Shown here in pieces: positions 20,541-24,529 of a stretch of 64,000 bases of DNA. Position 1 is the first letter of the stretch. The number at the start of each line of letters is the position of its first letter. This DNA is from a virus, in the IMG/VR virus record IMGVR_UViG_3300022700_000177, positions 19,929 to 83,928 of that record; one strand, given 5' to 3'. The notes beneath the pieces were generated by a model, which saw only the letters and a program-made list of their open reading frames with translations, was not told the origin of the DNA and ran no database searches. The position numbers and the translations under genes are program-made.

Positions 20541-20758
20541 GACAAAAAAGAGTTAGGAGTTTGAGAGAAGCTTTTTTAGGTTTAGTACAGAGGATGAAAA
20601 TAGCGGATAAACAGCAAACCTCTTTTTGGAGAAAACTCAAAAGAGGTTATAATGAATCCAAGCAACCAAAAATGAAAGATCACAGACCAGAAATAAAAGC
20701 AAAAATTGAAAGGAGTAAGAGGAGAAAAAAGAAAAATGCTGAACTGGCTACATCTTAA
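20537..20758 (+). CDS. Very basic small protein
   Basis: 73 residues, over one third Lys and Arg, likely nucleic-acid binding. The ATG that overlaps the previous stop has GGAGG before it. The last bases overlap the start of the SbcC N-half gene. No family recognised. Confidence 0.5.
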   Translation: MRQKRVRSLREAFLGLVQRMKIADKQQTSFWRKLKRGYNESKQPKMKDHRPEIKAKIERSKRRKKKNAELATS

Positions 20759-21770
20759 AAATTTCCAAATCCATAAGGATTCTCTATTGGAGTTTAGTCC
20801 AGGCATAAACTTCATAAAAGGGGAAACTCACAATGGCAAATCCTCTATTGTGAGGGCATTAAGATTAATTGCTTTCAACGATCCCCTAACAGATGAATAC
20901 TTACATGAAGGCAAAACCACCACAATAAAAGCTGATATTGACGGAAATACTGTAACAAAAATACGAAGTAAATCAAAGAATGAATATAAAGTCAACAATG
21001 GCCCTTCTTTGAAAGCTTTCAGAACGAAAGTCCCGGAAGAAGTTTCTCAAGTATTGAATCTCACCACACAAAACTTTCAAGAACAGAAGGAACCCTACTT
21101 CCTAATACAGAATACCCCTACAGAACGAATGTCAATTCTTGACAATATTGCTGGATTTGAGGAAATAAAAAATATTCTTAGTAATGCCAATTTGGAAGTC
21201 CATAGAATTTCAAGTGGTATAAATGCTTTGAAAGAAAGGATTGAAGAACATCAAGAACAGCTTAAGGATTATAAAGGGGTTGAGGAAAAGTATAATCAAG
21301 TTGAATCCACATTGAACAACCTTGAACTTGTAAAATATTATAAAAACTGTATTTTTGAAATTGAAAATATCCTTGAACAGTTAAGAAATTTCAAAAAGAA
21401 GGAAGCCAAATTAAAAAGGATTATAAGTAAAAAACCCGTTGTTGCAGAGTTCAAAAAAGTAAGGAACAAATATTGGGAAATACATTCTGATAGAGTGGGC
21501 TTAATCACCATTCAAAAAGATATCATAGATGTAAAGAGAAAAATAAGTGAATCTCAAAAAGTGATTGAGAAGAAAGAAGCTGTTCAGCAAGCAAAAGATT
21601 TGATACAGAGATTGACAGAAATAGCCAAGGGCAAGGTCCTGCTGAACGATCTACTCAAACATGATAACAAACTACAGGCAGCTAAAAAACGAGCAGAGGA
21701 CCTCAAGGAGCAGAGAAAACAGCTTGAGGCAGAGGTAGAAGTATGCCCTATATGTAAGAAACCCTTCTGA
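20736..21770 (+). CDS. sbcC: SbcC/Rad50-like ATPase, N-terminal half ending at the zinc hook
   Basis: 344 residues. The start MLNWLHLKNFQIHKDS and Walker A GETHNGKSS (about 29-37) are those of SbcC, Rad50 and T4 gp46. A Q-loop-like TQNFQEQKEPYFL follows near 118-130. From about 150 to 335 it is coiled coil. It ends with the zinc hook CPICKKPF and an immediate stop. The missing half, with the ABC signature and Walker B, is encoded 2.1 kb downstream at 23912. The two probably join to make one ATPase head that acts with the SbcD-like nuclease in end processing. GAGGAG precedes the ATG; there is no sign of decay. Confidence 0.85.
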   Translation: MLNWLHLKNFQIHKDSLLEFSPGINFIKGETHNGKSSIVRALRLIAFNDPLTDEYLHEGKTTTIKADIDGNTVTKIRSKSKNEYKVNNGPSLKAFRTKVPEEVSQVLNLTTQNFQEQKEPYFLIQNTPTERMSILDNIAGFEEIKNILSNANLEVHRISSGINALKERIEEHQEQLKDYKGVEEKYNQVESTLNNLELVKYYKNCIFEIENILEQLRNFKKKEAKLKRIISKKPVVAEFKKVRNKYWEIHSDRVGLITIQKDIIDVKRKISESQKVIEKKEAVQQAKDLIQRLTEIAKGKVLLNDLLKHDNKLQAAKKRAEDLKEQRKQLEAEVEVCPICKKPF

Positions 21771-21777
21771 GGAAAAA

Positions 21778-22647
21778 ATGAAACATTTACCAGTATTTAT
21801 TCCATGTTATTTTGGGGACAAATCAGTTAGAGAAAAACGAATCAAAGCATTTGAGACTCAGGTAGAATGGTTTTTATCTTTGGATGAGAGAATAGTTCTC
21901 TTTATTACTATAATGGACCCCCACTATAAACCCGCACCAAACAAAAGAATCTATTATTTTTATTCAACTAAAATTGTGCACCCTTCAGTCATAAAAAATA
22001 GAGGGTTGAAAGAGTTTTATAATAGTGAGGCCAAGTGGTGCATACTTGCTGATAATGATTCTATACTATATGACCACTTCATTGGAGAAAAAATATTCTC
22101 TCATATGCTTGACTACCCAAAAGAATGGTCTAAATTAGATATGTGGTATCCTATCAATCCTATAAATGAGCCTTTTAATTGGAGATACAGGAACGGTACT
22201 GTAAAGCAACTTATTTATTTTGAAACAGCAAGTGTGACTTTGAAAGGGAGCTTAATTGCTTTAAGGAATACAGGAACAAAAGTGTTTTTCAATGAGAACA
22301 GGCTTTGCTCTGAAGACACAGAGTTTCTTATCAATATGATTATGGAGGGCAAGAGGTGCTATAAATGTGTGGGTGCGGTATTAAAGGAATTAGTACAATC
22401 AAAAACACAAAGTACCTTTGAAAAACTAAAAAACCCAGAAGATAGAAAAACAATAGTCTCACAAGATAAATTAGAATTGGCAAAGAAGTACCCCCCACTG
22501 CAAGCGAAAGTTATGGAGAATGGGAATGTGAATTTTATTACCAATCAGTTTTATAAAAAATACAGGGTAGGACCAAAGAATATAAAGATACCCATAGATC
22601 CAAATGATAACCCTGTAATATTCAAATCTATGTTCAATGGGGAATGA
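21778..22647 (+). CDS. Glycosyltransferase-like protein, GT-A fold
   Basis: 289 residues. CILADNDS near residue 85 is a DxD-type metal and nucleotide-sugar motif, and SEDTEFLINMIMEG near 180 is the acidic segment typical of family 2-like transferases. It opens LPVFIPCYFGDKSVREKR. It stands unexpectedly between the two halves of the SbcC system. The acceptor is unknown. Confidence 0.6.
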   Translation: MKHLPVFIPCYFGDKSVREKRIKAFETQVEWFLSLDERIVLFITIMDPHYKPAPNKRIYYFYSTKIVHPSVIKNRGLKEFYNSEAKWCILADNDSILYDHFIGEKIFSHMLDYPKEWSKLDMWYPINPINEPFNWRYRNGTVKQLIYFETASVTLKGSLIALRNTGTKVFFNENRLCSEDTEFLINMIMEGKRCYKCVGAVLKELVQSKTQSTFEKLKNPEDRKTIVSQDKLELAKKYPPLQAKVMENGNVNFITNQFYKKYRVGPKNIKIPIDPNDNPVIFKSMFNGE

Positions 22648-22648
22648 T

Positions 22649-22858
22649 ATGGAAAACGAAGTTGATATTTTTTCACTTCCAATAGAAATGGATGAAACAC
22701 ACGAAAGAGGAAACGCAAGCATTTGTGTAGATAAAATAAAATGCCACCCAGATGATTATGAGTTGCTTGTTACAGGATTAAATGGATTAAGAGGAAAGAT
22801 AAATGAAAATCATGGCGTTGCCGGATCTTCATCTGAGGATTCAGAAACCAAAGAATAG
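22649..22858 (+). CDS. Hypothetical acidic protein
   Basis: 69 residues, family not recognised. The ATG at 22649 follows GGGGA; an in-frame ATG at 22637 lies inside the glycosyltransferase gene. Its last 56 bases overlap the SbcD-like gene. Confidence 0.45.
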   Translation: MENEVDIFSLPIEMDETHERGNASICVDKIKCHPDDYELLVTGLNGLRGKINENHGVAGSSSEDSETKE

Positions 22859-23819
22859 GAAAGACCAAGATTTCTATTCTTCAGTAGTGTTAAAAAAATT
22901 ACAATGGATTCAAGACTTTGCAACTGAGAATGGGATTAATTATGTGATCCAACCTGGGGACTTTTTTGATTCAGCAGAAGTCCCAAAAAGAATCATAGGT
23001 GATGTAATAAAAATTCTTTATCCTAACACATTTGCCAAAATAGACTGGTTTGTTGTTCCAGGCCAGCACGATCTTGTCAATCACTCTCCTAATCTATCAA
23101 ATACACCAATAAGGCTTCTTGAAGAGGCTAAGGTTGTCCGTATTCTCAAAAAAGATGAAGCTGTATGGCTTAGTGATGAAGTTTCCCTCCAGGGGACGGG
23201 TTGGGGAGAAGAGATTCCAGAGCCATCAGAAGATGCTGCTATAAATATTCTCACACTACATAAAATGATTGTGAATGAAGAAAAAGAATGGGATGCTCAG
23301 GAAGGACATACATGGGCATTACAACTTCTAAGAAATAGTGGGTTTGACTATATAATTTCAGGAGACAACCACAGAAGTTTTCATATACGAAACAGAAGTA
23401 AATATTTGATTAATTGCGGCACACTCATCAGAAACAAGATTGACATGAAAGAGTATAAACCTTGTGTTTATGTAATAGACACCGAAAAGAAAGAAGTTAA
23501 AAAGCATTATGTTCCTATAAATACAGATGTATTTCAAGAGGTTGAGACTGAAGTTGAAAAATTGGCAGAAACCTTAAAAACCTCTTTTGAAGTTTCACTA
23601 AGCTACAGAGAGAATGTTTTCAAAAGAATGGAAGAGCAAGAAATAGATGAGTTAACAAGATCCTATATATTAAAAGCAATGGAGGTTGAAGATGGCGAAG
23701 AATATAGAGGAAATGTCCCAGAGGTTTCTGGATCTGGAAGAGGAGATCAATCAAGCAGAACAAAACGTCCATCGCTTAACAGGAGAAAGAAGCGTTTTAG
23801 TCAAGACCTTGAAAGATAA
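22803..23819 (+). CDS. sbcD: SbcD/Mre11-like nuclease
   Basis: 338 residues, metallophosphoesterase fold, like T4 gp47. The metal-binding motifs appear in order: LPDLHL (start), QPGDFFDSAE (about 50), PGQHDLVNH (about 85), LTLHKMI (about 158) and SGDNHRSF (about 190). It cuts DNA ends or hairpins with its ATPase partner, encoded on both sides of it. The final 40 residues are Ser/Arg-rich and overlap the next gene by 128 bases in another frame. Confidence 0.88.
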   Translation: MKIMALPDLHLRIQKPKNRKDQDFYSSVVLKKLQWIQDFATENGINYVIQPGDFFDSAEVPKRIIGDVIKILYPNTFAKIDWFVVPGQHDLVNHSPNLSNTPIRLLEEAKVVRILKKDEAVWLSDEVSLQGTGWGEEIPEPSEDAAINILTLHKMIVNEEKEWDAQEGHTWALQLLRNSGFDYIISGDNHRSFHIRNRSKYLINCGTLIRNKIDMKEYKPCVYVIDTEKKEVKKHYVPINTDVFQEVETEVEKLAETLKTSFEVSLSYRENVFKRMEEQEIDELTRSYILKAMEVEDGEEYRGNVPEVSGSGRGDQSSRTKRPSLNRRKKRFSQDLER

Positions 23820-23940
23820 ATATAATGTGTCCTCAAATAAAGAGACAACAGATAAACTTGAGGAATTAAAAAAGGAAGAACAAGAGGCAAAAGCGAAATT
23901 GGAGGAGTTGTATGAGCAAATTACAGAGGATGCAAGTTAG
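23692..23940 (+). CDS. Coiled-coil protein between SbcD and the SbcC C-half
   Basis: 82 residues, almost wholly coiled coil with heptad-like Leu and Glu/Lys. The ATG has GGAGG six bases upstream. It overlaps SbcD by 128 bases and the next gene by 29, so all three are coupled. It could supply part of the coil that the C-half lacks; this is inference from position and structure. Confidence 0.6.
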   Translation: MAKNIEEMSQRFLDLEEEINQAEQNVHRLTGERSVLVKTLKDKYNVSSNKETTDKLEELKKEEQEAKAKLEELYEQITEDAS

Positions 23941-24529
23941 GCTTGAGGAGATACAGGATGAGTTGAAAGACAAATTAGCCAATAAGAGGTATGTTGAAGA
24001 TCAGATTAAAGAAGTAGAAGAAAGGATTTCTACTGAGGAAGAGAATAAAAATGCAGCAAAGATAGCGAGAGAATTTTTACAATCGGTTGCTACTCAAACC
24101 CAAAATCAGATTGTAGAATATTTTGAAAGTACTGGAACCCATGCAATTCAGCCTCTTTCCGTAGAACCCATATCTGTTAAAATGGATTTTTTGGAGAAGA
24201 GGGGCAAGACAGAATGTGATTTGTATTATCAGGATAAGAATGGCAAGAGGCTGAGTCCTATGTTTTCTTCAGGATATGGACTCAATGATATGAGTTCCAT
24301 AGCTTTCAGACTTCTTTACTGTAACATATTGAAAACGAATAAGATTTTAGTTCTTGATGAACCTATGAAGCAGGTAAGTGAGGGGTATATTGAGGAAGCA
24401 TGTGAAATCCTAAAAACACTTGTTAAGTCAGAAGGTTTCCAAGTAATCCTAATTTCAAATGCTTACAAACCTTTCTTTGAAGAAATTGCAGATAAAGTTT
24501 TTTATGTTGAACAGGGTGAAGTTTATTAA
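23912..24529 (+). CDS. sbcC: SbcC/Rad50-like ATPase, C-terminal half
   Basis: 205 residues. The first 50 are coiled coil. The ABC signature region reads FSSGYGLNDMSSIAFRLL (about 117-134), Walker B is ILVLDEPMKQVSE (about 145-157), and ILISNAYKPFFE occupies the H-loop position with Asn instead of the usual His. It has no Walker A, which is in the protein encoded at 20736. GGAGGAG precedes the ATG. The arrangement is a complete Rad50-type head in two chains rather than a broken gene. Confidence 0.85.
   Translation: MSKLQRMQVRLEEIQDELKDKLANKRYVEDQIKEVEERISTEEENKNAAKIAREFLQSVATQTQNQIVEYFESTGTHAIQPLSVEPISVKMDFLEKRGKTECDLYYQDKNGKRLSPMFSSGYGLNDMSSIAFRLLYCNILKTNKILVLDEPMKQVSEGYIEEACEILKTLVKSEGFQVILISNAYKPFFEEIADKVFYVEQGEVY

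What the first reader, a model, noticed from the sequence alone, without database searches (positions are those of the whole stretch)
20736..24529. SbcC/Rad50 ATPase split in two genes exactly at the zinc hook
The gene at 20736 has Walker A, Q-loop and about 185 residues of coil and stops directly after CPICKKPF. The gene at 23912 has a short coil, ABC signature and Walker B but no Walker A. Between them lie SbcD, a separate 82-residue coiled coil, an acidic small gene and a glycosyltransferase. All frames are open with good ribosome binding sites, so this looks like a working two- or three-chain complex. The coil lengths are unequal (about 185 against 50), and the 82-residue protein could make up part of the difference.
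Basis: partly seen in the sequence, partly recalled or inferred. Interest (0 to 1): 0.8.

Follow-up and report, generated by a model that had tools for sequence, protein, structure and literature searches.

The report
A Rad50 made from three genes
In this phage, and in hundreds of related phages, plasmids and some bacterial chromosomes, the DNA-repair motor SbcC/Rad50, normally one long protein, is encoded as three separate proteins cut at its zinc hook; no account of such a natural split was found, and it raises the question of how such a machine works without its continuous arm.

Summary
Window gene 20736-21770 is lobe I of a Rad50/SbcC ATPase plus an arm, ending at CPICKKPF*. Gene 23912-24529 is lobe II. 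SbcD (22803-23819) and an 82-aa helical hairpin, "K" (23692-23940), lie between them.

It is not an error. 198 non-redundant related loci have the same split. Of 133 with all four genes complete, none joins N and C. 177 of 182 N-halves stop within 40 residues of CxxC. K is a conserved third gene. Pieces lie tens of kb apart in three named replicons, so they work in trans. Plasmids fuse SbcD to the N-half only. About 16% of sampled Bacillota-type genomes carry the C-half; three inspected chromosomes have recA-recX-sbcD-N-K-C-rny, and eight of nine tested genomes show no classical SbcC. One genome carries an SbcD-N-C fusion without arm, hook or K.

The N-arm is built of 47-residue repeats and its length changes in whole units (about 170, 217, 260, 320, 366) while K and C stay constant, so a simple antiparallel N:C arm cannot be the whole structure.

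Best reading: a three-chain Rad50 working with SbcD. Assembly and activity are inferred. I found no published description.

The parts
20736..21770 (+). SbcC/Rad50 N-half: ABC lobe I (Walker A, Q-loop), arm, C-terminal CPIC
   Evidence: HMM match to Rad50 3aux residues 1-222, E 6.6e-19; AlphaFold2 pLDDT 85 and Foldseek to 3auy, 1f2u_A, 3qkr_A
20820..20846 (+). Walker A (GETHNGKSS, residues 29-37)
   Evidence: sequence; G29, G34, K35 each 99% conserved in 132 sequences
21744..21755 (+). zinc-hook motif CPIC (residues 337-340), 4 residues before the stop
   Evidence: C337 100% and C340 99% conserved; 177 of 182 N-halves end within 40 residues after CxxC
22803..23819 (+). SbcD/Mre11 nuclease subunit; family homology ends near residue 296, the last ~42 codons overlap K
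   Evidence: Pfam Metallophos 9.4e-8; conserved D8, H10, D53, H89, D90, H153, H190
23692..23940 (+). K: 82-aa third subunit, predicted helical hairpin (helices 2-44 and 49-81)
   Evidence: AlphaFold2 pLDDT 96 on 96 sequences; conserved next to the C-half in the family
23912..24529 (+). SbcC/Rad50 C-half: about 50-residue coil, degenerate signature motif, Walker B, no Walker A
   Evidence: family profile matches Rad50 chains 3qkr_B, 1ii8_B, 1f2t_B, E down to 2.7e-18
24344..24361 (+). Walker B with catalytic Glu (D149/E150)
   Evidence: D149 and E150 100% conserved in 131 sequences
21778..22647 (+). spacer gene, 289 aa, no family hit; passenger between N and D
   Evidence: relatives carry other genes or none here
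22637..22858 (+). spacer gene, 73 aa acidic, no family hit

Best explanation
The four genes encode a Mre11-Rad50 (SbcCD) type end-processing complex in which Rad50 is made of three chains. The N-half supplies ABC lobe I and the C-half lobe II; together they make one ATPase head, and two heads close on ATP and gate the SbcD nuclease. The N-half also carries the arm, with the zinc-hook cysteines at its very C-terminus, so two N-halves can be joined by one zinc. The short coil of the C-half pairs with the root of the arm, where SbcD would bind. K, a helical hairpin, packs on the arm in place of the missing returning strand or as an arm cap. Shown by computation: the split, its conservation, identity of the lobes, SbcD partnership by synteny and fusion, trans arrangement, predicted hairpin fold of K, 47-residue modular arm. 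Inferred: assembly, zinc binding, ATPase and nuclease activity, K's position and stoichiometry.
For: N and C profiles match complementary parts of solved Rad50 heads (3aux 1-222 and 174-368), including P. furiosus structures held as separate N and C chains (1f2t, 1ii8, 3qkr). In an intact relative (L340) N and C profiles align in order, 60-423 ending just past the hook and 552-748. 133 loci have N, D, K, C all complete: NDKC 108, NKCD 24, DNKC 1; no ORF holds both N and C. Dispersed in trans: Magritte N 93.8 kb, K 127.2 kb, C 0.3 kb; Jeotgalibacillus plasmid D-N fusion and K at 375-377 kb, C at 450 kb; Tunturi_5 N at 127.6 kb, C at 19.3 kb. SbcD fused to the N-half only, on plasmids. D-N-C fusion of 700 aa without arm, hook or K. 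Chromosomal recA-recX-sbcD-N-K-C-rny order; no TIGR00618 match at E<=1e-15 in 8 of 9 such genomes. Split family monophyletic, 100% bootstrap.
Against: No complex model or experiment. The window's own C-half has a degenerate signature and lacks the H-loop histidine, so this copy may be weak. K has no detectable similarity to the post-hook part of an intact relative, and its PDB sequence hits are generic coiled coils. Three records (Tunturi_5, pSC2, Ricciae_BoGa-3) gave no K at E 1e-3, although the two plasmids have a 96- or 88-aa gene in its place.
Confidence: 0.83

Rival explanations
1. The complex forms, but K is not a structural arm piece: it is an assembly chaperone, inhibitor or DNA-binding cofactor that only travels with the C-half.
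For: K is unlike any part of an intact SbcC by sequence, is a self-contained predicted hairpin, and its length does not follow arm length.
Against: K is present next to the C-half in nearly every locus where it could be seen, persists when genes are dispersed, and is absent in the one armless fusion.
Confidence: 0.25
2. In this particular phage the split SbcC is decaying or has become a non-hydrolysing DNA clamp.
For: Signature GGG to GYG and H-loop His to Asn in the window C-half; SbcD overlaps K by 128 nt, unlike relatives.
Against: Walker A, Q-loop, Walker B Asp/Glu, hook cysteines and SbcD metal ligands are all kept; all frames are open.
Confidence: 0.12
3. The halves are rejoined after transcription or translation (trans-splicing, split intein, frameshift or intron), giving one SbcC chain.
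For: A homing-endonuclease-like domain sits right after the hook in L093 and an AP2 gene follows N in vB_BboS-125; such elements can fracture genes.
Against: N ends with a stop 2-20 residues after CxxC with no intein sequence visible; C has its own start and ribosome site; SbcD and other genes lie between; K is a separate gene; genes are dispersed in three replicons.
Confidence: 0.02
4. Sequencing or assembly error, or pseudogene fragments.
For: None.
Against: Same break in 198 non-redundant loci and in complete records of cultured phages and plasmids.
Confidence: 0.01
5. The phage halves do not pair with each other but each poisons or completes the host's own SbcC.
For: Phages often target host SbcCD/RecBCD (general knowledge).
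Against: N, C and the phage's own SbcD travel together; in the chromosomal cases no classical SbcC was found to pair with (8 of 9 genomes).
Confidence: 0.03

Closest known systems
Mre11-Rad50 / SbcD-SbcC complex (E. coli SbcCD, archaeal and T4 Rad50)
   Same: ABC lobes I and II, Q-loop, Walker A/B, CxxC zinc hook, SbcD partner, short coil at the root of lobe II
   Different: Rad50 is three chains cut at the hook; no returning strand in the same chain; modular 47-residue arm; extra subunit K
P. furiosus Rad50 crystal structures with separate N and C chains (1f2t, 1f2u, 1ii8, 3qkr)
   Same: Lobe I and lobe II on separate polypeptides forming one head; top structural and sequence matches
   Different: Laboratory constructs without most of the arm; here the separation is natural, keeps the arm and hook, and adds K
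Mre11/Rad50 fusion proteins (Yoshida et al. 2011, PMC3175470)
   Same: SbcD joined in front of SbcC; the authors noted that one P-loop NTPase segment was not observed in Anaerostipes and in Bacillus phage 0305phi8-36
   Different: Those fusions were described as single-chain; the missing segment was not traced to separate K and C genes. pSC2-type plasmids here are D-N fusions with K and C as separate genes
PHROGs 16465 ('exonuclease') and 15167 ('ATPase')
   Same: Match the N- and C-halves respectively
   Different: Not linked to each other or recognised as one split protein; K reaches no PHROG
Phage genes fractured by homing endonucleases (general knowledge)
   Same: A gene in pieces, with homing-type endonucleases at the break in some members
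   Different: The split is shared across phages, plasmids and chromosomes, and the pieces have moved apart

Membership tests
SbcC/Rad50 | Lobe I with Walker A and Q-loop | tested here: met
   Pfam AAA_23 3.8e-10; Rad50 structures by profile and fold; G34/K35/Q117 99% conserved
SbcC/Rad50 | Lobe II with signature motif, Walker B and H-loop | tested here: inconclusive
   Lobe II by profile to Rad50 chains, 2.7e-18; Walker B D149/E150 intact; signature and H-loop intact in most of the family but degenerate in the window copy
SbcC/Rad50 | CxxC zinc hook at the end of a helical arm | tested here: met
   CPIC at 337-340 after predicted helices; zinc binding itself not testable here
SbcC/Rad50 | Lobes, both arm strands and hook in one polypeptide | tested here: not met
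   Three separate genes in every complete locus
SbcC/Rad50 | Intramolecular antiparallel coiled-coil arm with matched strands | tested here: not met
   N-arm about 170-366 residues in 47-residue steps, K and C constant
SbcC/Rad50 | Partnership with SbcD/Mre11 | tested here: met
   SbcD in the same cluster, or fused to the N-half; genetic association only
SbcC/Rad50 | ATP-dependent end processing | not testable with these tools
   needs biochemistry
SbcD/Mre11 | Metallophosphoesterase motifs DxH, GDxxD, GNHD/E and later histidines | tested here: met
   D8, H10, G52, D53, D56, G87, H89, D90, H153, H190 present; N of GNHD is Q here
Split intein / spliced gene | Intein halves or splice elements at the junction | tested here: not met
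   N stops right after the hook; no further domain except an HNH-like tail in L093

The most novel reading that the evidence does not exclude
This is a Rad50 class with a different arm: two N-halves run side by side, or each N-arm folds as a bundle with the K hairpin, so there is no head-to-hook-to-head antiparallel coil, and arm length evolves freely in 47-residue modules. In several Bacillota it has replaced classical SbcC as the cell's own enzyme.
Probability: 0.45. Interest if true: 0.87.

Novelty: new variant of a known kind. Interest (0 to 1): 0.74.

Why it matters
How Rad50 passes signals between ATPase heads and the distant zinc hook is an open question, usually studied in a protein whose arm is one continuous chain. 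A natural version cut at the hook, with a third subunit and with the hook only on one chain, makes the question directly testable: chain continuity is not needed, arm length can be varied by 47-residue modules already sampled by evolution, and hookless (Magritte) and armless (the G113 fusion) versions exist for comparison. It also means that genes named 'exonuclease', 'ATPase', 'ParA' or 'hypothetical' in phages, plasmids and Bacillota chromosomes are parts of one repair complex, and that some bacteria that appear to lack SbcC probably have it in pieces.

Tried and rejected
Looked for an intact SbcC elsewhere in the record: none. Looked for N-C fusions in the viral set: none. Tried to place K on an intact SbcC by profile: no significant match; PDB profile hits for K are generic coiled coils and its fold has no specific PDB match. 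Tried coupling analysis on 193 adjacent 47-residue unit pairs to tell a zigzag bundle from a straight arm: helical i,i+3/4 signal only, no clear antiparallel pattern, inconclusive. Archaeal ASRP was considered as the nearest intact relative because it is the best NCBIfam hit for N (1.3e-12); the genome search was dominated by SMC/Rad50 and decided nothing. 0305phi8-36, the only earlier hint, could not be opened. Nine literature searches found no split SbcC/Rad50; the library holds open-access papers only, so a description elsewhere is possible.

Full report
Observation. The window is bases 19929-83928 of an 83,928-bp viral record. Gene 20736-21770 encodes 344 residues: ABC lobe I with Walker A and Q-loop, a long helical arm, and CPICKKPF followed by a stop. 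Gene 23912-24529 encodes 205 residues: a short coil and lobe II with Walker B but no Walker A. Between them lie a 289-aa gene, a 73-aa acidic gene, SbcD, and an 82-aa coil here called K. Pfam and PHROGs identify the N-half as AAA_23/SbcC-like, the C-half as PHROG 'ATPase'/SbcC and the third as a metallophosphoesterase. No other SbcC is in the record.

Not an error. Scans of viral contigs with N- and C-half queries gave hundreds of relatives; one C-half scan alone confirmed 466, of which the best 80 were kept. After removing duplicates, 198 loci remained. In 133 all four genes are complete, in the order N-D-K-C (108), N-K-C-D (24) or D-N-K-C (1). No reading frame in the set contains both N and C. 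Of 182 N-halves with a complete end, 177 stop within 40 residues of CxxC; the five others are three with C-x6-C-like endings (L008, L041, L089), one with a homing-endonuclease-like tail (L093), and Microbacterium phage Magritte without hook cysteines. Caution: the 133 were selected for having all four genes; contigs lacking one were mostly cut by contig ends.

Cultured and named members. Bacillus phage vB_BboS-125 has N, an AP2 gene, K, C and an unannotated SbcD. Microcystis phage Mvi-JY20 has N-D-K-C. In Magritte N, K and C lie at 93.8, 127.2 and 0.3 kb; in Tunturiibacter phage Tunturi_5 N and C lie at 127.6 and 19.3 kb on opposite strands; on a Jeotgalibacillus plasmid SbcD-N and K lie at 375-377 kb and C at 450 kb. 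Pieces that far apart must act in trans as separate chains.

Beyond phages. On Bacillota plasmids (pSC2, pGspE55-1) SbcD is fused to the N-half, which still stops after the hook, and K and C follow as separate genes; the annotated 937-aa metallophosphoesterase of the Ricciae_BoGa-3 plasmid looks the same. A search of 300 genomes of the phylum of the Tissierellia genome (L147) found the C-half in 49; two samples of about 200 genomes from other phyla found only the seed genome. Inspected chromosomes show recA-recX-sbcD-N-K-C-rny-ymdB-spoVS or close variants (L370, L371, L373; neighbour names by my reading of the proteins, not by a family search). Eight of nine such genomes gave no match to TIGR00618 (SbcC) at E<=1e-15, a search that does ring in B. 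subtilis and E. coli; a diverged classical SbcC below that threshold is not excluded. One genome, G113, has a single 700-aa protein with SbcD (4-312), lobe I (335-502) and lobe II (510-680) in that order, no arm, no hook and no K. It falls inside the split clade, with moderate support (69), so it is probably a later re-fusion. That natural fusion is direct evidence that N and C are two halves of one ATPase, and suggests K goes with the arm (one case).

Structure. Family profiles of N and C match complementary parts of solved Rad50 heads, 3aux 1-222 and 174-368. The best structural matches to the N model include P. furiosus Rad50 chains solved as separate N and C polypeptides, so a two-chain head is physically sound. 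AlphaFold2 gives the N-half pLDDT 85 with arm helices 141-177, 182-231, 233-278 and 280-333, and K pLDDT 96 as a helical hairpin, 2-44 and 49-81. Only single chains could be modelled; pTM of the N model is 0.38, so the arm's overall shape is not determined.

The arm is modular. Among 110 non-redundant N-halves the distance from the Q-loop region to the hook clusters at about 170 (9), 217 (73), 259-264 (9), 305-321 (5) and 366 (14) residues. Mean hydrophobicity along the 217-class correlates with itself at a shift of 47 residues (r 0.60; next best 0.31). Each unit is a continuous heptad pattern ending in a break at L-x-L-E, and the predicted helix breaks at 232 and 279 are 47 apart. Chromosomal members fall at about 320 and 369 with one near 286. 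K (median 80 aa) and C (median 205 aa) do not vary with arm length. In classical Rad50 the two arm strands match; here they cannot. Either two N-arms run in parallel to the shared hook, or each arm folds as a bundle with K. Coupling analysis could not decide.

Phylogeny. A tree of concatenated lobes puts all split sequences in one clade with 100% bootstrap against eight intact SbcC/Rad50. Outgroup sampling is small, so an intact sister could have been missed. The window groups with L006, L008 and L013.

The window copy. Walker A, Q-loop, Walker B, hook cysteines and SbcD ligands are kept, but the signature motif and the H-loop histidine are changed. SbcD runs 42 codons past the end of the family's homology, across K; K's own start and ribosome site lie inside SbcD. 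This overlap is the longest of all NDKC loci.

Likely role. Neighbours include a UvsX/RecA-like recombinase, a FEN1-type exonuclease and a RusA-like resolvase. The complex most likely processes DNA ends for phage recombination and replication, as gp46/gp47 does in T4 (general knowledge).

Novelty. Open-access searches found no split SbcC/Rad50. The nearest precedent is a 2011 note that one P-loop NTPase segment was not observed in SbcD-SbcC fusions of Anaerostipes and Bacillus phage 0305phi8-36 (PMC3175470), not traced to separate genes. I rate it a new variant of a known kind: it works like Mre11-Rad50 and belongs to that superfamily by its lobes, but fails the single-chain and matched-coil features.

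Noticed in passing
23692-23819: SbcD overlaps K by 128 nt; SbcD homology ends near residue 296, and the extra 42 codons are overprinted on K, unlike relatives. A lost stop codon or a frameshift error in SbcD are possible causes.
   Followed up: partly
L093 423-2015: An HNH/NUMOD-like homing-endonuclease sequence is fused directly after the hook of the N-half, and vB_BboS-125 has an AP2 gene right after N: the split site attracts, or was made by, homing elements.
   Followed up: partly
L057 8001-9390 (same contig as L128): The N-half gene is interrupted by about 480 bp between two matching pieces, possibly an intron.
   Followed up: no
L003 7424-8404 (NC_048735.1 22423-23403): SbcD of Bacillus phage vB_BboS-125 is not annotated in the deposited record.
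   Followed up: yes
L369 4152-6254 (-): A 700-aa natural fusion of SbcD with both ATPase lobes, with no arm, hook or K: a minimal Mre11-Rad50.
   Followed up: partly
L149 4001-5053: Magritte's N-half ends without hook cysteines although K and C are kept, so the hook is dispensable in some members.
   Followed up: partly
window 23912-24529 and 23692-23940: The C-half coil (Gly in 93% of relatives at window position 23) and K share a Gly-x-x-x-x-Leu-like motif in a helix; shared ancestry or a common packing partner is possible.
   Followed up: no
21778-22647: 289-aa gene with an ADND motif, no family match in three libraries or PDB; unknown passenger.
   Followed up: partly
about 36000: GC skew changes sign near 36 kb, suggesting a switch of transcription direction between genome halves.
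   Followed up: no
L379 4224-6989: Escherichia phage IME392 has a 921-aa protein matching the SbcD-N junction of the plasmid fusions; it may be an intact single-chain fusion.
   Followed up: no
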